Shown: positions 6,901-17,300 of the stretch, in pieces | How the letters are laid out: every line of letters starts with the position of its first letter | Numbering within the stretch: position 1 is the stretch's first letter | Assembly: GCF_000003815.2 (NCBI RefSeq) | Contig: NC_049986.1 | Span: forward strand, 6,192,868-6,256,867 | From: Branchiostoma floridae | Lineage: Eukaryota; Chordata; Leptocardii; Amphioxiformes; Branchiostomatidae | Length of the DNA stretch: 64,000 nt | Direction: 5' to 3' | Notes under the pieces: generated by a model | The model's input: only the letters and a program-made list of their open reading frames with translations | Told to the model about the DNA's origin: nothing | Database searches by the model: none | Position numbers and translations under genes: made by a program

Positions 6901-8373
6901 TTGGGTTACACAAAATGCTAAATGGCTACATGATGTTCAACAAGCTTTCAGTTGGTGTTTATCTCTAAATCATTATAGCAACATTTTTGTATGCATATAT
7001 TTATTTTATTTATCATGCGACAATTATGCCAACTTGCAGTTTTTCATGTAAACGAAACGGGCGTGGTTATGGGCATAGGTCCGGAGTTATAATTCCGAAC
7101 CGTTATAAGTCCGGACCTCCAAATGAATTTCTATATATACCTTGCTTTAACCTTAACTTTAGTTTTATTACACAGTAATAAATGTAAGAGCTATAGCCAT
7201 TGCACTGTACTCCCATTGGTTAAAAACTTGAATGGTTTGAATGAGTAGCGCTACCCCAGCTCCTGTCATTCAAATTGCAGATGCTGTAGATGGGCAGCAA
7301 AACGCAAGTTGTCGGCAGACACAACAGGTACAGGAAGCCGTAGACCACGCAGGAAAATTCCGCTGGATGTAATATGGCCGTTACGATGTAGATTCCGACG
7401 AAGCTGAAAATGATGAGGATATCCACAGACGGGATTCCTGACCAAATAAGGAAGCTAGAGTTAGTCCAGAAATAAATACTAGTAGAGTTCATATTCAATG
7501 CCATGTTGGCAACTAGGAGGAGTGATATAATGCAGAAACATATAGAGATGCACATAATACACATTCCACATAGCACGAATATCAATCAGACGATAGTCTC
7601 TGCGCTCTAAAGGACATTTTACGCAGTGATACGTCCGTCCGTGTTTTCTAGATCTGCGCGCGATTTTTAATGATAATTGAAGATCGTCAACAATGTTACA
7701 GGAGTATAAATATAAGTTATTTGGAAACTGCAAGACAGTAACTTTCCTAAAGAGTTATTTTCTACTTGTTCATGATTACCTGATCTGTCGGTAAGTTGAA
7801 GTTGCAGGTCTTGAAAGACGGCAATAGCGCAGCCTAGACTCAGTGCGAACATTGCTACGAAAAAAGCAGCAGCCAAAAGCTTGGCAACCTGTAATATGAG
7901 GGGGAAACGGTCATTTAAACGAGATATATAAAGGATTCTGCATGTTACGTTACAATCTAACACTAAGGTCAATCCATTTAACCAGATCTGGTGTAAATTA
8001 AATGTTCTAGAATCAAGCATAATTTTGCACCATCGTCTGTTCAAGAATAACTTAATCATATATGTTTCTTATTAGCACCAGAAGTTTCAAATTGGTAGAT
8101 TTCCTGATTTTTATTTGTATTCCGGCTGTTGCGGTCCATTCGGTAGTGACGTCGATGATAGCGTATTGCTTGAGCATTTCAAATGGCTATTTATTTGCAT
8201 GGGTGTTTGCGCATATATATATACTATGTTTAATGAAGTATTAAAAATAGTTCTTACCTTGAGCTGTGTATTCTGTTGTGCATAGAGGCACACAACACCG
8301 TAAGCCACAGTGGCTAGACTCAACACGATCATTGATATCTCAAGACTCAGTCCGAAAGCAAGCTCCACTCCAC
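3975..8373 (-). CDS. Exons 28-35: C-terminal membrane region and tail
   Basis: Exons 28-30 encode four hydrophobic segments and the LHPAEFSC and [14 protein letters not shown] stretches of animal chitin synthases. The SWGTRE motif is split across the intron between exons 30 and 31 (TGG G / GT ACA CGT GAG), which independently confirms that junction. Exons 31-33 encode a polar, low-complexity linker rich in Asn, Gln, Glu and Lys. Exon 34 has the conserved [12 protein letters not shown] and [16 protein letters not shown] segments. Exon 35 has [19 protein letters not shown] and FHR-like [11 protein letters not shown], followed by a short acidic cytosolic tail ending TMTEF and TAA. No polyadenylation signal was assigned with confidence. 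Confidence 0.9.
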
Positions 8374-11300
8374 CTAGGTTTTCGAATTAGGGCAAAGGTT
8401 AACATAAAAATAATAAGTATCGCGGTATAGAAAAATCGCATGGGGAAAATTATGGCATTTACTTATAATGCTTTGGAGTTCATATAAACACATGTGTGCA
8501 CATTTCCGTGTATATTTGTTTTGATATAAAACCATAACCATGTAGATACTTTTGATGCTCAACATTTTATAATTATACTTAAAAGACCAGTTCTATTGAA
8601 ATATTACATAACTGTACCAATTATAAAGTTAGTTTAAGAAAATTTTAAAACGTTGGATATAAAAATATCGATTTTAGGAATGTTTATAATTACCAAAAAC
8701 GTAAAACCAATTACGACTGATATTACATCAAAGCGAGCATTCCTACCTGGTCAAAAAATCGAAACGTGAGTCGCATAAGTTCGTAGTTTGGAAGAAAAAC
8801 AATGCTCAAGGATTATGGTGCAATATGAATCTATAATAACATTTTTTCTCATAATTTCTTGAGCAGTTGATCCAAGTTGTGAACTAATGAAGCATAATGA
8901 ACCGTGTGAGCCTGCATGGCAGAAACCTCAGGTCTAAACACCAGATAACACAATTCCACTGTAGAACGGCTAGGTACAGAAAGACTACACTGCCGTACCT
9001 TGTCGACTTGCTAAACAGTTCATAGTGCTAGAAGTATAACTAAGCTTTGGATGTATACACAGTTATTTTAAAGATGATTATTGTTATGTTTTATAATGTT
9101 TTGACTTGTGTACCTCTATTGCTTTTCATTTTAAATGTAACATGTGTAAAGCATACTACAATTCAGCCGAAGAAATGAAGGCTGCCACTGTATGTTATTG
9201 TTTGTCGCTCGATGCGGAAATAAACCATTCATATACTAAACATACCGGCGACAAGTATAAGGCAGGTTCCAGGGGTGACAATGGAGGAAACGATGAGGAG
9301 TATCTGGTAGAGTAGGAAGGGTCGCGAAAAGTTGCGGTTGTTTGCTACAATCGTCTTCCAAATCTGTTGACGAAAACGGGAGATTGGTGACGCCATAGAT
9401 TGTTCAGCTGAGTAACGACATTATCAATGTTCGATGTTGCCTTGATTTCTTGAGTGAATTCAAAATCACTTAGACAGACTCTACATTATAATGATTATCC
9501 TACTAAAAGCCCGATTGTTATCGAAGAAAACAACAACCCTTATTGCGTACAAGGAACACATCTTTATGTGTTCTTTTTTTAAAGTCATGACACCAGTGAC
9601 ATTCTTCTCGCGGTACTTGACTCATAATAGATAATAGAGTATTTGTCAGATTTAAATTTGTTTACTGATACTTGGTTTGATTTATTGATGCTGAACATGT
9701 TCATAGTATAGAAGGAAACGTGTAGAGGGGGGGGGGGTGAATAGTGGTTTATTGGAGCCTGCTTATCAGAAATATTCCGCGCTTAAAACTAGTTGCACAT
9801 TAAAAACTTAACAATCAGATAGCATTGTCAGCTTGCAAAAACTGTAACAGTACGCCCAAGGGCTTGCATCTTACAATGCAAAAAATAACAGTCAACACAA
9901 AATAACAGTACCTGGGCGATGATAATCGGGTTAACAAGGCTGGAGAGCAGCCAGCGTCGACGCTGTTTGAACAGCTCTTCGAACGTCTCGGGACAGTATG
10001 TAAAGTCTTCAGTCATCGCTGAGTATTCCAGAGTCCACCCGTGCTTGATCTAGCGCGTTCGAAAGACATTTAAAAGTAAAAGAATTATATAAGACAAGTG
10101 GAGACAACACTAAGCTATACTGCAATAGTGGCGCTGGATCCGTCATACAGATCAGTACGACAAAATTATGATCACCTTTGAGCATGAAAGGATTTTGCAG
10201 GAATACAAAGCATCTGATAATGTCCACGGCTTACCGCTCGAATGACATATATCAATGATATACCGACTGCTATATATGTATAATGATTCATAATACAGTC
10301 AAACCTGCCCAAGACGACCACCCGCGGGACCAGACAAAAGCGGTCAATTTGGACAGGTGGTCGCTGAGAAGAGTATCGACTCACAACATGCCCGATGTAT
10401 AGTATAAATTACTGTACGGTGTACCTTTCGAATTCGCTTGGGCAGGTTTGACTATATACATGTATAGCAGTCATTCACAAGAGGGAGCTAGGAAGGTAAC
10501 ATTCCAGAAAATGCAGCATGTTTCCCACCCGGTAATATGCCTTTTGTGAAGTTAATCACACACATCATTATATCATAAATCTCGCCCCTGAAGCGTCGCC
10601 AAAAATGACATAATTTATGCACCTTTATTCACTCATTGAATAATCTTGATAATGGACATGTCTTGTAAAACTTTTTGAAATACTTTGGGATATGCACAAT
10701 GGTTTTTGAAAAAGTCAGTTTCATCCTGTGCATTTTGTATAATATATGAAATATGGTCACTTTAAAGAAAGTTAGATTTACTTTAACACATTAACAAATA
10801 TGTCGCCAGCATGATAATATAAAAAATGCATGACAATAGACAAGCATTGCATAGTGCTTGCATTAAACCCAAATAACAAAAGTAGAAGTGAGAAGAACAC
10901 ACACAAAAATGTGATTTTCCTATGGAGAAACATAACTAGGATGACGACTTACCAACAGGGTACAGAACCACCTGTCCTCTCCCATGTCCTTGACGAGGAA
11001 GTCATTGGCTTCCTTGACATGAGAGGAATATTCAGACAGTCCGTCTCTGACGGCATTTGCTCGGTAGACAGAGAAACATCCAGGGCAGCAAAGAACGGTT
11101 CCCATCATATTGTTAGCCGTCTATTTGTTACGGTAAAAAAATAGAATGCATTACCATCTCTGCTTCATGTTGGTATTAATTGAAATTCACTAATGTCGTG
11201 ATAAAATTCCATGTCAAGTTTTGCTATGTTTGAATGACGTTATACTGGCAAGATGCATGTCAATTATCAAATTTAAAGCAATATGAATGAAAAATAAAGC

Positions 11301-14300
11301 CCATTGTAAATTACGTATTTCATTTAGTAATAATGTTTTTTTAAACAATGTGCATTTCAGTTTTATCTCTCTTATCGAAAACCTCAATGCAGTTCAAAAG
11401 CAAGCTGCTGGGGCCCAAAGGTACAAAACATCTTCCAATGAGCTCATGAGGTTCACCAACGTGGTAATAGACATAAACAACGGAACTTCTACTGCAATAC
11501 TAAGATCATATACATGGGGCTCAATTTTTTTCTTCTTCTTTCCAGGATCTACACACATAGGGTTAGGGTTATTGTAACCATATGTTAACCCAAAACTCTA
11601 ACCCTGAAACGAAACAAAAACACCGATAGAAAAGCACTCAAAGACACACAAAAACAATACCTCATGAGACAGGGGGCCGATATCGACTTCTAAGCACATT
11701 TGATCCTTTGTTTTTAACGCCACACTTCTGGTCTGGATATATAACTTCACATGGTGCTGATCGAAAGCTTTGTTTCGTGTACGGATATAAAGTTTAAACG
11801 TGTACATGTAACATAACCACCATTTTCTATTTTTAAAAAATGACCTTACCTTTCCCAGCCAGTGAGCTATGGCGTAGTCAAATATCTGATACCATGCCAC
11901 AGGTCCGGAGCCTATCGGGTGAGTCCGCGCGCACACCGCCCCGACAGATGGGTTCTGTACGACAATGTCCAGTAAAGATCTGACGGCCTCAGACTTGAAC
12001 TTGACATCCCCATCCGTCATTAGAATGTAGGTGTTAGCAAGCCTGTCATCTTCAGAAACAAAAAGTTTGTACAATGCTTGCAAAGATTGGTGTACCAAAA
12101 CAAAACAAAATTTTGAAATGAGACAGATTACTTTCTAATATTAAGTAATGTATGTATACTACGTAAACATCCATAATAGAATTAAGCTCAACGTCAGGTA
12201 AATGCAATCTATCTACGTAGAAATAGACAACGAAAAAATCTGATAAAAATCGCAACATGAGTCGCTATTATGTCATTTTAGCTATAAGGCCACAGCGTGT
12301 GAATTTTAAGAATTACATCCTCTGTAGACAGCAAAAATAACAGAATGGGAGATAAAACAAAAAAAAACATTAACGAGGTAATAAAGGAAGAATTTGATAT
12401 TACAGCCATCCATTCCTCTATTCAAAATTTAGAAGTTGATCACCAAGTTCGCAACTCAATTTATTGCTTCAGTATTCGTGCCACCATCAACTATCCAATT
12501 TTCATAGAAATACATTCATAGCTACCTCACATGTGTCACTTCTGCATAATCGCTAAGCACACAATATCTGGCCATTTCGGTGCTTTCTCGTTATTTGTAC
12601 CAACTCCGTTGGGGAAAATCTTTTCAAATTATTGCGTAAACTAATGAGCGCCTATGTCATCCTTTAGATTTACTTGCTGTAGACTTATGCACTCCACTAG
12701 GGTGGGTACCGGTAAAAAATCAAGTACAGGTACGGTTCAAGTCGTAAGGATCAGGTCCAAATTTGGACCTGAACCTGATTAGGAGTATCTGTAAAAACTG
12801 AATGAACAATACTCAAAACAATGGTCCATTTCGCTACAAAAGATTATGTTTGATGGGGTATCCGACGTCCACTGGCGTTTAAAAATTCTATTTTCATGTA
12901 AACAAGACTAACTGCCTCTGTCTTAGACCAAGTTTGACCGTAGAAGCTTGGTAATAATGACCATCAACTCCCATCTACTTTTCCTATTGTTTTTTTTTTT
13001 GTTGTTGTTGTTGGCCTTAAGCTTGTCAGGCCCTTCACACGCGAACACCTGCCGATATAATCTCTTTATTTTCGAATTTGTACAACGGTTTTTCTGGACC
13101 GATCCAACAAGAAAGACGGTTCTGTGCCGGTACACAATACACACATCTAATGCCAATGGCTCCAAGCCATGTAGAGAACGTTACACATTATCTGTTGCAT
13201 ACGGAAAAAACATGTACATACTGAGAGGGTGTCCAAGGACCTCGAATCTCATGCCGTGACACTTTGTTGGATAAATCCGCAGAAATCGGGTCTTGATGGG
13301 TTGTTTGAGAAGAATTTTGACGGGTTCTTCAATTCCATCTTCCGAAACAGTGAAAGTCTAAAAAAAGAGCATTAACGGTAATAAAAAAAATTAAATCAAG
13401 TTATATCTGTCCATCGTATATCCTCTTCAACAGAAGTCAGTAATAATTGTGAATATTCTTAAACCTTTTTTATGTTTGTATGTATATGTCATAAAGTAAA
13501 ACACTTAAGAAAAATACAATTACACTAAAATGATACCTGGCAAAATATATCACTTGACAGTGATGACACATAGGTATAATTGTAAATATTGTCATCTACA
13601 GATTCATATAGTAGTAAATGAAAATCGTTACATTGTTGATTAATGACATGTGAGATAGCGCAGCGTCAGTGTGTTTCGAGTTTGAATCCGGCTGCCGCGT
13701 CACCGATCTTGTGCCCCTGAGAAAGGAACTTTACACGACTTTCCTCGCTTTACTCGGGTTAAAACAGTCGAACCGCAGAGCTCTATGCGCATCCGTTCTG
13801 CGCAGCCTTCTCTACAACAGGTCGTGCGCCTGATCGCGGTTTGTCCTGGTTTGACCTCTTTGCATGGGTGCAAATAAGTGCCTGTTGTGCAACAAAAAGA
13901 CCTCAGACCTACGTAATGTTTATACTTTTTCACATCTACAGGTTTTGCCACGCACAGCTATGTACATATTTCGTGCATGGCAAAATGACAACGAGCGCTG
14001 TAGCTTTCGAAACATTTGCAAGTTTTGATCCGTTTATTTGTGGCTGTCTTTTAAACAGATCAACTTCATCCCATTAGCTAACACCACCATGTGATAGCCC
14101 AGTTTCTCTCCTTTAAATTGATACCAAAGTCACCGGGTTAATTTATGGAGCAACGTTTTGCCCCGAAATTATGTGCGAACATACGCAAATCACGGTGGTG
14201 AAGTTTCAGTCTGGTTGTAGCTACCCACGCACACTACCCCGTGTTTAGACCGTATTCTTATACATTTCGCATGGTGTCAAAGACCTCATTTCTTGGCAAG

Positions 14301-17300
14301 AGAAGCGGAATGGGTGCGGCTGTCACATGCAATATAATAAGTGACATGATGATAGACAAGTGTACATTGACACAGAGTTTTAGTACAGAATAAGAATTTT
14401 AAAAAATCGTCAGTTTTCAAGTCAATCTGTTTCGAACTCCTGGTCCGAACCTGGGTTCGAGCGGTGGAACCCAGCCGGTACGTTCCATTTTTCGTGCCGC
14501 GGGGGTCAAGCCTAATGCTGCAAGTTCAACCAGCGTTTGGAAAAGTTAACAAAACTAACAGCTCATGTCTTGCCGTCGCAAATAAACTTCCTGAAACCTA
14601 CCAAACTAAAACTGACATTATTCAAAAGCCAGAATAAGTGGGATTCATGTGCAAACAAACTGATATCAATACTTCATGTCAGAGAGTTGTATAGCATAGT
14701 GAAAGATCCGTGTGTGCGGTTTGTCGTTCGAAAAAAAGACGCTGGGAATTTGACATGTTGTTACATAATTTCGGGGCAAAAAGTTGCTCCTCAAATCAAC
14801 ATGGAAACTTTGGTATCAATTTAAAGGTGAGGAACTGGGCTATCACGCTGTGGGGTTAACTAATGGGATCAAGGTGAACTGTAAAAAAGAAAGCTACAAA
14901 TAAACAGACGAAAAATTGCCAATGTTTCGAAGGCAACATCGTTCACAGTCATTTTACAATGCACGAAATATCTACTAGGTTGTACGGGGCAAAACCTGTA
15001 GATGTGAAAAAGTATAAACGTTATGTAGGTTTGAGGTCTTTTTGTTGCACAACAGGCAGTTGTTTTAACCCTTGCAGCGGGGTCAAATCGGGTCGCGACA
15101 AAAGCGGTATCTTAGAGAATAACGCGTTCTGGGGTGACCTGCGGTTCGACTGAAAATGAGTACTTAGCTTCGGCTAGGGCCGTCCCTCGGATAGGACGTT
15201 AGATGAAGGTCCCGTGTATGGTGAGAACCATACCCAAGGCACGTTAAAGAACCCCCACACGTGCGATGGTGCGGTGTGCGATGGAGCAAAATCGTTCTGA
15301 CTGGAGTTAGCGATTCACTATAAATCATCGAATGTAGGCCTGGCGAACCTCTGTTTCGTATCAACAACCACATGTTGAGTGACGTATTGGAACTTTCACC
15401 CGGACGGGAGACGTGGTGCATTACCGTCTTGTATTCAGCTAAAGAAGGGTATATGTCACCTCTAACGGGGCGGTATTACCCAACGCAAGGGGTTAGTTCC
15501 TGGCCTATACACATACATTATACAGGCAAAATTTAAATTACATCATTTGCAAGTGTAGATACCTTGATGGGCCCATCCGTACTGTCCCTGTATCTGATCC
15601 AGTCGTCATCGCTGAGACGCAGTGTGTCCCTCCTTTTAAGTGGGTTGGAGGATTCCATGTAGCGCAACTGGAAACGTGGTACACTCTGGCCGTAACTTTG
15701 CTCCACTTGCATCAGAAGTCCTGTCACTGACATCGGCTCACCAAAATCAATCTTCGTTTATAAAAAAAAAGAACAACGATTACCAAAATGTAGTCTTAAA
15801 ATATGCTTGGCAGCATTGTGCTTGGTCTCATTTTGCTCGGCTGTATAGTGAGAAATACAGCCAGGGCTACCCAACAAGCCGGATACTATTATCAAGGGCT
15901 AGCCCTGGTAACTGTGCAATATACAATATAGCAATATTACGTTTGCCGATACATGAGGTTTGTTTTTCGAAGTAGGTTATACAGACAACACAAGGTACGG
16001 ATAAATTTGACTACAGATTCTAGTTTCTTATTACGTAAACTAACGTGTTGTTTCTTATAATAATATCTCTTTTAAGGATGGCAATATATAAACCAAATGA
16101 CCCCCCCCCCCCCATGAAGTTTTAATGTTTACTAATAGACATTTGGAAAATAAAATTCACTGCATCTATAATGGCAACAATTTTGAGAAATCGCAGGATG
16201 CATCCCATCCAGCCGTTTATCAAGCTTCTCTCCCACAATACTATAACATTTGGTTAGGTATTAAGGCGTTGCCAGGAAGGTGACCAAAAAAAAAAAAAAA
16301 AAGATATAAATTTTCTATGGGAACAAAAAGGATAAGGAAGCTACCATGATGTACGGCTTAGGGTCAGTTTTATCCGGTTTCCAAAACGTGGACCCGTTTA
16401 GTCTTGCACGATGTGGACCATTCCGGTCAAAGTTCAGCATCCCTTTCTTTGGTGACGACGCGGTGATTTCGTCATTCAAGATGGCGCCAGATGACATTCC
16501 CAGTGGACTGGAATTTGCTTTGAGATACCAATAATGTAGTTGATATCAATTAAGTAATATTTTTTGTGCTAACTACATCGTTGAATTTGAAAGAAATAAC
16601 TGTTACTCCTAGAGGATGCGTATTTGTATGTTTTGTTTGTATGTGTATAGTTATCGTGTGTATTTGTGTTTGTGTGGGTTCATGTACATGTGTGTTTTGT
16701 GTGTGTGTGTGTGTGTTTGAGTGTGTGTGTTTGAGTGTGTGTGTTTGCCATAAAGCTTGCTCTAGACTTAAAGTCGCATTTTCGTCCCGCTATTTTAGGA
16801 TTCCTGAACAAAGCATCGAAGGATTTCCGTAATATCCAGTATGCATCTATTTTAGACAGACACGTACACAAACGTTTTGAGTTGCCAACGCGTAAAAAAC
16901 TTAAAACAGATATCTTATATATCGCCACTTAACTCTGAGTTACTTCTAAAAACATGTGCAGTACGTGGATATGTGCATATTCTAGAGCTTGTAAATTACC
17001 AGAAAAATCCAGGATATAGGACATGTACATGACTTGGCTCCATCTCTTGCCTGCCTTCACCTGCTCAATGACAGTGTAGAGAATTGTTATCTCAAAATAG
17101 TTTAATCTTCTTGAATCTTAAGTATTGCTGTTTTCTGTAAATCAGTTTGCAAAACGTTCTAGGGCAAAAAAGGTCTTATTCAAGGATTGACCATATGCAA
17201 CCAACACTTACAGTTGACGTTAACTTGATAGGTCGTTTCCCCATGTGATTATCTTTAGATAAGAAAGTACATGTTTTCGGAAGCAATGTTTTGAAACTTG

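What the first reader, a model, noticed from the sequence alone, without database searches (positions are those of the whole stretch)
13222..16517. Discoidin (F5/8C) domain inserted in the chitin synthase catalytic domain
Between the [13 protein letters not shown] motif (exon 20) and the TDGD strand (exon 24), where family members have only about 20 residues, three exons encode a full 166-residue F5/8C domain. The flanking catalytic motifs are intact and in frame, so the domain appears to be displayed from the GT2 fold. I know of no chitin synthase with this layout, but I could not search.
Basis: partly seen in the sequence, partly recalled or inferred. Interest (0 to 1): 0.95.

Follow-up and report, generated by a model that had tools for sequence, protein, structure and literature searches.

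The report
Discoidin domain inside chitin synthase core
In this lancelet-like genome, nine of the seventeen chitin synthase genes that could be checked carry a discoidin domain spliced into the middle of their sugar-polymerising core; the combination appears to have been reported in 2012, but here the domain seems to sit inside the cell, not outside it.

Summary
Three exons (window 16517-16345, 15751-15563, 13357-13222, minus strand) encode a 166-residue F5/8C domain (Pfam PF00754, 64.4 bits, cut-off 28.2). It lies in frame between the KRWSQVM helix and the TDGD strand of a chitin synthase. The exons form a symmetric phase 1-1 cassette.

It is not unique. In the same genome, 9 of 17 chitin synthase genes readable on both sides carry the insert there, one of them twice in tandem. 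Eight lack it; in the six modelled, a phase-1 intron is predicted at or near the site. The closest gene pair shows purifying selection (dN/dS about 0.13). In one paralog, skipping the cassette would create a stop codon.

All 10 inserted domains lack the two border cysteines usual in this genome's other F5/8C copies, and the GT2 core is cytosolic in solved relatives. I read it as a cytosolic interaction or assembly module, not an extracellular-matrix binder. That function is inferred.

The combination is probably already in print: Guerriero 2012 on B. floridae chitin synthases. I saw only its title, in reference lists, and recall its abstract.

The parts
17000..17060 (-). Exon 20: catalytic helix [20 protein letters not shown], ends in phase 1 (donor gtaatt)
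16345..16517 (-). Exon 21: first third of the F5/8C domain ([14 protein letters not shown]...KPYIM), phase 1 to 0
15563..15751 (-). Exon 22: middle third of the F5/8C domain ([11 protein letters not shown]...DGPIK), phase 0 to 0
13222..13357 (-). Exon 23: last third of the F5/8C domain (TFTVSEDG...[10 protein letters not shown]), phase 0 to 1
11850..12049 (-). Exon 24: DxD strand exon [18 protein letters not shown]...HWLGK, starts in phase 1
10953..11120 (-). Exon 25: [20 protein letters not shown]...[11 protein letters not shown] (EDRW motif)
9912..10049 (-). Exon 26: [33 protein letters not shown]... (QRRRW motif)
7220..9420 (-). Hydrophobic open frames resembling the C-terminal transmembrane exons of a chitin synthase (judged by eye from recalled motifs; not modelled)
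   Evidence: ORFs 9229-9420, 8111-8386, 7667-8068, 7220-7585
13358..15562 (-). Intron between exons 22 and 23, holding a dispersed inverted-repeat element

Best explanation
This is an animal chitin synthase gene. An F5/8C module sits as a phase 1-1, three-exon cassette inside the GT-A core, between the KxxS helix and the DxD strand. Shown here: domain identity, position, phases, nine gene copies, purifying selection in the closest gene pair, and absence of both border cysteines. Inferred: the module was shuffled once into a phase-1 intron of an ancestral gene of the SAM-bearing (type I-like) group and spread by gene duplication. Because GT2 cores lie in the cytosol and no membrane span borders the domain, it folds in the cytosol, at the end of the helix-strand hairpin opposite the active site. 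There it serves as a protein-interaction or self-association surface that groups synthase molecules or tethers them to partners. It probably neither binds extracellular matrix nor takes part in catalysis.
For: Pfam scores 64.4 bits for the window's insert; nine of the ten inserted domains in nine genes pass the cut-off (range 23.8-99.8 bits; the one below is C17 domain 1). Phase 1 in and 1 out in all nine genes, with two irregular borders told below. In the six insertion-free paralogs modelled, the best donor and the best acceptor give a phase-1 intron at or near the site. The exon junctions fall near Pfam positions 37-39 and 82-90, and 44 of 150 listed F5/8C matches genome-wide (166 reported) cover a similar middle stretch. 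C3_6606 versus C3_6722: insert dN 0.033, dS 0.25; the insert's pN is below its pS in all 11 comparisons. In C8b, joining exon 20 to 24 gives TAG. Border cysteines: 0 of 10 inserts at either end, against 12 of 16 (N-terminal) and 11 of 12 (C-terminal) in other F5/8C copies of this genome. TYILMTDGD aligns to the PsChs1 strand before DVGT 382-385; the paper puts KASKL 355-359 and DVGT in the reaction chamber of the GT domain, which is tethered under the membrane at the cytosolic side (passages). SAM_2 matches lie 6-14 kb 3' of six CHS genes, three of them insert-bearing (C8a, C8b, C3_6688). Muskelin is intracellular (abstract start) and has a discoidin domain (passages); a paper cited there has 'self-association' of that domain in its title.
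Against: No transcript, protein or structure shows that the domain is translated or where it lies. Insert-free synthases in the same genome show the module is dispensable for the fold. Inserts evolve much faster than the core exon: identity 49% against 73% (window/C8a), 52% against 94% (C8a/C8b), 53% against 98% (C8_9627/C17); this fits a peripheral role but also weak or changing constraint. Silent sites are saturated in most pairs. Two copies (C8_9627, C17) match the F5/8C profile only weakly (39.6, 23.8, 28.3 bits). Eight of ten inserts hold cysteines elsewhere (1 to 4), so disulfides at other places are not excluded. The control F5/8C domains are close relatives of one another. C15 uses a GC donor and one exon of C17 domain 1 has no confirmed acceptor. 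C16 has no intron at the site and C5 seems to have its intron elsewhere. SAM was not found for the window gene. No assembly or partner-binding evidence exists.
Confidence: 0.55

Rival explanations
1. Extracellular-matrix reading: the discoidin domain is exposed outside the cell and binds collagen or glycans, as the title of the 2012 paper suggests ('extracellular matrix-related domains').
For: Closest solved relatives by sequence are extracellular domains (neuropilin, factor VIII, lactadherin; their location is general knowledge); the 2012 title is cited.
Against: The domain lies between two motifs that form one active site in the cytosol-side GT domain of PsChs1. No transmembrane stretch was noticed in the 166 residues (by eye). 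Both border cysteines are absent in 10 of 10 inserts.
Confidence: 0.12
2. Alternative-splicing switch: exons 21-23 are an optional cassette; skipping gives a canonical short-loop synthase, inclusion a modified or inactive one.
For: Symmetric 1-1 phases; the 20-24 junction stays open in 8 of 9 genes and reads [18 protein letters not shown] in the window. The exon 21 acceptor is weak.
Against: In C8b the skipped product has an immediate stop. In the closest pair the insert is as conserved as the core exon (dN 0.033 versus 0.028). No transcript data.
Confidence: 0.25
3. Lipid-binding reading: like factor VIII C2 or lactadherin C2, the domain binds phosphatidylserine, here on the inner leaflet or on transport vesicles, helping deliver or orient the synthase.
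For: Factor VIII C2 is among the best PDB sequence matches, and GML of the insert falls on NMF of factor VIII in the alignment (the role of that loop in membrane binding is recalled).
Against: The loop is not conserved among the ten inserts, and the insertion point lies at the end of the hairpin that should face away from the membrane (inference from connectivity).
Confidence: 0.15
4. Decayed or misassembled locus: the exons are relics or a nested unrelated gene.
For: Individual exon scores are weak; intron 22 holds a dispersed repeat.
Against: Open frames, matched phases, intact splice sites and the same layout in eight paralogs on four contigs (C8, C3, C15, C17).
Confidence: 0.02

Closest known systems
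Discoidin- and SAM-bearing chitin synthases of Branchiostoma floridae (Guerriero 2012, Genomics Proteomics Bioinformatics 10:197-207, PMC4937987; text not held, title seen, abstract recalled)
   Same: Probably the very same gene family: chitin synthases of a lancelet with discoidin domains. I recall nine such proteins, and I count nine genes.
   Different: Whether that paper places the domain inside the GT core, or notes the missing cysteines, the phase 1-1 cassette or the double domain on C17, could not be checked. Its title calls the domains extracellular-matrix-related; the evidence here points to the cytosol.
Metazoan type I chitin synthases (Zakrzewski 2014, PMC3942024; passages seen)
   Same: GT2 core; most type I enzymes have one or two C-terminal SAM domains; SAM_2 matches follow six of the CHS genes here.
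   Different: No discoidin domain is mentioned: the paper is not among the five holding both 'chitin synthase' and 'discoidin'.
Phytophthora sojae PsChs1 (7wjm; PMC9556331, passages seen)
   Same: GT-A core; KASKL 355-359 followed by DVGT 382-385, which I take as the counterparts of the two elements that flank the insert.
   Different: 22 residues between them; here about 23 plus the 166-residue domain.
Muskelin discoidin domain (PMC9180843, passages seen; PMC1876237, abstract start)
   Same: An intracellular protein with a discoidin domain; self-association is in the title of a paper it cites.
   Different: N-terminal domain of a kelch protein, not inserted in an enzyme core.
Plant cellulose synthase plant-conserved region (recalled, no call)
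   Same: An extra module inserted in a GT2 synthase core before the DxD strand, thought to help assembly.
   Different: Inserted before, not after, the helix preceding the DxD strand; unrelated fold.

Membership tests
F5/8 type C (discoidin) domain, PF00754 | Profile match above the curated cut-off | tested here: met
   64.4 bits against 28.2
F5/8 type C (discoidin) domain, PF00754 | Cysteine pair at the domain borders, usual in extracellular eukaryotic members (common, not required for membership) | tested here: not met
   Absent at both ends in 10 of 10 inserts; other copies in this genome 12 of 16 and 11 of 12
Chitin synthase, GT2 | DxD, EDR and QRRRW motifs in order and in frame | tested here: met
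   the PDB sequences matched are all chitin synthases (6 of 6 at E up to 0.001)
Metazoan type I chitin synthase | C-terminal SAM domain | tested here: inconclusive
   SAM_2 matches 6-14 kb 3' of C8a, C8b, C3_6688, C3_6449, C3_6187 and C5 (not joined in gene models); none found for the window gene, whose 3' end may run off the window edge; the SAM_1 search failed
Exon-shuffled symmetric (1-1) module | Same intron phase on both sides and empty introns of that phase at the site in relatives | tested here: met
   Nine of nine genes 1-1; six of the eight insertion-free genes modelled and phase 1; C16 has no intron there, C5 not modelled
Discoidin chitin synthases of Guerriero 2012 | Same gene identifiers or sequences | not testable with these tools
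   Paper not held

The most novel reading that the evidence does not exclude
A normally extracellular adhesion module has been re-engineered, by loss of its border disulfide and by exon shuffling into an intron inside a glycosyltransferase core, into a cytosolic assembly or control element of a polysaccharide synthase. It was then duplicated in tandem in one gene and made obligatory in another.
Probability: 0.35. Interest if true: 0.72.

Novelty: already known. Interest (0 to 1): 0.45.

Why it matters
It is a clean case of a complete folded domain tolerated inside the catalytic core of a processive sugar polymerase. One genome holds nine natural copies with the insert and eight without, so its effect on assembly, location and output can be tested by comparison. 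If the domain is cytosolic, as its position and missing border cysteines suggest, the extracellular-matrix reading implied by the 2012 title would need revising.

Tried and rejected
Nested or separate gene: rejected by phases and by recurrence in paralogs. Uniqueness of the layout: rejected (9 of 17 genes). Single gain without loss versus later losses: unresolved. The core alignment is only 144 columns. A tree with the nine insert genes as one clade is not rejected (AU p 0.128), nor is one that groups insert-free C3_6449/C3_6493 with C8_9627/C17 (p 0.654); most nodes are weak. Insert tree: all ten inserts fall on one side of a 99% branch from other F5/8C copies, but those are 15 rows holding only 9 distinct, closely related domains. 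SAM domain in the window: not found. C3_6720 was left out of the 17-gene count because its 5' side is not visible. C3_6722 has a run of N where its EDRW exon should be. One off-by-one exon start (C15) broke its frame and was corrected; one off-by-one end of exon 25 showed and was corrected. C17 domain 1 has no confirmed acceptor for its third exon. dS is saturated in most pairs, so only C3_6606/C3_6722 supports a dN/dS value.

Literature searches. 'Chitin synthase' with 'discoidin' gave five papers; passages of one (PMC1945033) show no link to this subject, and the other four I judged by the listing (title and start of abstract) alone. The library does not hold Guerriero 2012.
Full report
The window is C8:6192868-6256867 of an unnamed 513 Mb genome in 431 contigs. 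Size and gene content fit Branchiostoma floridae, which I recall; no call names the species. The gene runs on the minus strand.

The observation. The three exons are window 16517-16345, 15751-15563 and 13357-13222. Each has AG and GT borders, in phases 1-0, 0-0 and 0-1; together they are 498 nt or 166 codons. Exon 20 ends in phase 1 after [16 protein letters not shown], and exon 24 begins in phase 1 with [15 protein letters not shown]. Exons 20-26 join into an open frame of 355 codons. The acceptor of exon 21 is weak. The joined domain scores 64.4 bits with PF00754, cut-off 28.2. Its best PDB sequence matches are neuropilin and factor VIII discoidin domains (59 distinct sequences at E up to 0.001). 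EDRW and QRRRW follow in order.

The site in the fold. The catalytic query matched six PDB sequences at E up to 0.001, all chitin synthases. In PsChs1 the aligned strand runs into DVGT 382-385, and the paper names KASKL 355-359 as the other wall of the substrate tub (passages). Equating KRWSQ with KASKL is my reading; the alignment does not reach it. The insert thus sits at the far end of the helix-strand hairpin whose near ends form the active site. This is inference from connectivity; no model was made.

The family. A search for the core found chitin synthase DxD exons at 18 places (a lower bound by the tool's own note). For 17 genes I could read both sides of the site. Nine carry F5/8C exons there: the window gene, C8a (6.085 Mb), C8b (6.120 Mb), C3_6606, C3_6722, C3_6688, C15, C8_9627 and C17. 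Eight do not: C3_6449, C3_6493, C3_6424, C3_6228, C3_6187, C10 and C16 and C5. The eighteenth, C3_6720, was incomplete and left out. C17 holds two domains in tandem, each a phase 1-1 unit (one acceptor is not confirmed). By Pfam, nine of the ten domains pass the cut-off: C17 domain 1 falls below it at 23.8 bits and C17 domain 2 just passes at 28.3.

How it arose. In six insertion-free genes the best-scoring donor and the best acceptor agree on a phase-1 intron, with the donor 16-29 codons after the start of KKR, against 17 in the insert genes. C16 reads through the site without an intron, and C5 seems to have its intron just after KRWSQ (not modelled). All nine insert-bearing genes have phase 1 on both sides; C15 needs a GC donor. 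The internal junctions fall near Pfam positions 37-39 and 82-90 in most copies examined (C15's first lies a few residues further on). In the genome-wide list, 44 of 150 listed F5/8C matches (166 reported) cover a similar middle stretch. This is the signature of exon shuffling of a standard F5/8C module. Whether the eight insert-free genes never had it or lost it is unresolved.

Is it used? In the closest pair, C3_6606/C3_6722, the insert has dN 0.033 and dS 0.25, much like the core exon (0.028 and 0.25). In other pairs silent sites are near saturation. There the insert changes far faster than the core: 52% against 94% identity for C8a/C8b, 53% against 98% for C8_9627/C17. In C8b the skipped product reads TAG at the junction, so inclusion is needed there; in the other eight genes the skipped frame stays open. 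No transcript data could be examined. PMC6109156 reports B. floridae chitin synthase EST clones and intestinal chitin (passages), but I could not link its clones to these copies.

Which side of the membrane? Discoidin domains in this genome outside chitin synthases mostly begin C..PLGM and end E..GC: 12 of 16 and 11 of 12 matches in the loci held. The misses are L032, one of two in L033, L034 and L035 (cysteine two residues later) at the start, and L031 at the end, a likely spurious frame. All ten inserts lack both cysteines at those positions; eight of ten hold one to four cysteines elsewhere. With the position of the flanking motifs, this argues for a reduced, cytosolic domain. The control sequences are related to each other, so the counts are not independent.

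Function. The most likely role is a protein-interaction or self-association surface that groups synthases or tethers them. The muskelin discoidin domain is an intracellular precedent. Lipid binding, a splice switch and extracellular matrix binding are the rivals. None was tested here beyond sequence.

What is known. Guerriero 2012 is cited by title in three papers. I recall its abstract as describing twelve B. floridae chitin synthases, nine of them with discoidin and SAM domains; I could not read it. Zakrzewski 2014 (passages) classes two of the Guerriero sequences as type I, most of which bear SAM domains. SAM_2 matches lie 3' of C8a, C8b, C3_6688, C3_6449, C3_6187 and C5; for the window gene none was found. 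The headline is therefore most likely already known.

Noticed in passing
window 13760-15092: Intron 22-23 holds an inverted repeat (arms 13845-14182 and 14755-15092, 338 nt, 83% complementary); about 195 bases of it match 39 other places in the genome at 86-96% identity (40 of 567 candidates scored), so it is a dispersed mobile-element-like repeat.
   Followed up: partly
G000:C17:3740300-3744000 (L064, L073, L079): A paralog with two divergent F5/8C domains in tandem in the same catalytic insertion site, 54% identical to each other.
   Followed up: partly
G000:C8:6120299-6122532 (L027, L042): In this paralog, joining the exons that flank the insert would create a TAG stop, which makes the insert obligatory.
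   Followed up: yes
G000:C3, loci L014, L044, L045, L055: Two chitin synthase core blocks in tandem about 2.7 kb apart; the second lacks visible 5' exons and runs of N lie between, so it may be a partial duplicate or an assembly artefact.
   Followed up: no
window 12017: The window gene has TDGDVKF where its insert-bearing relatives have TDAD[VI]KF, and [12 protein letters not shown] where they have QRRRW[LIGT]PST[VIL]AN; its core is divergent within the group.
   Followed up: no
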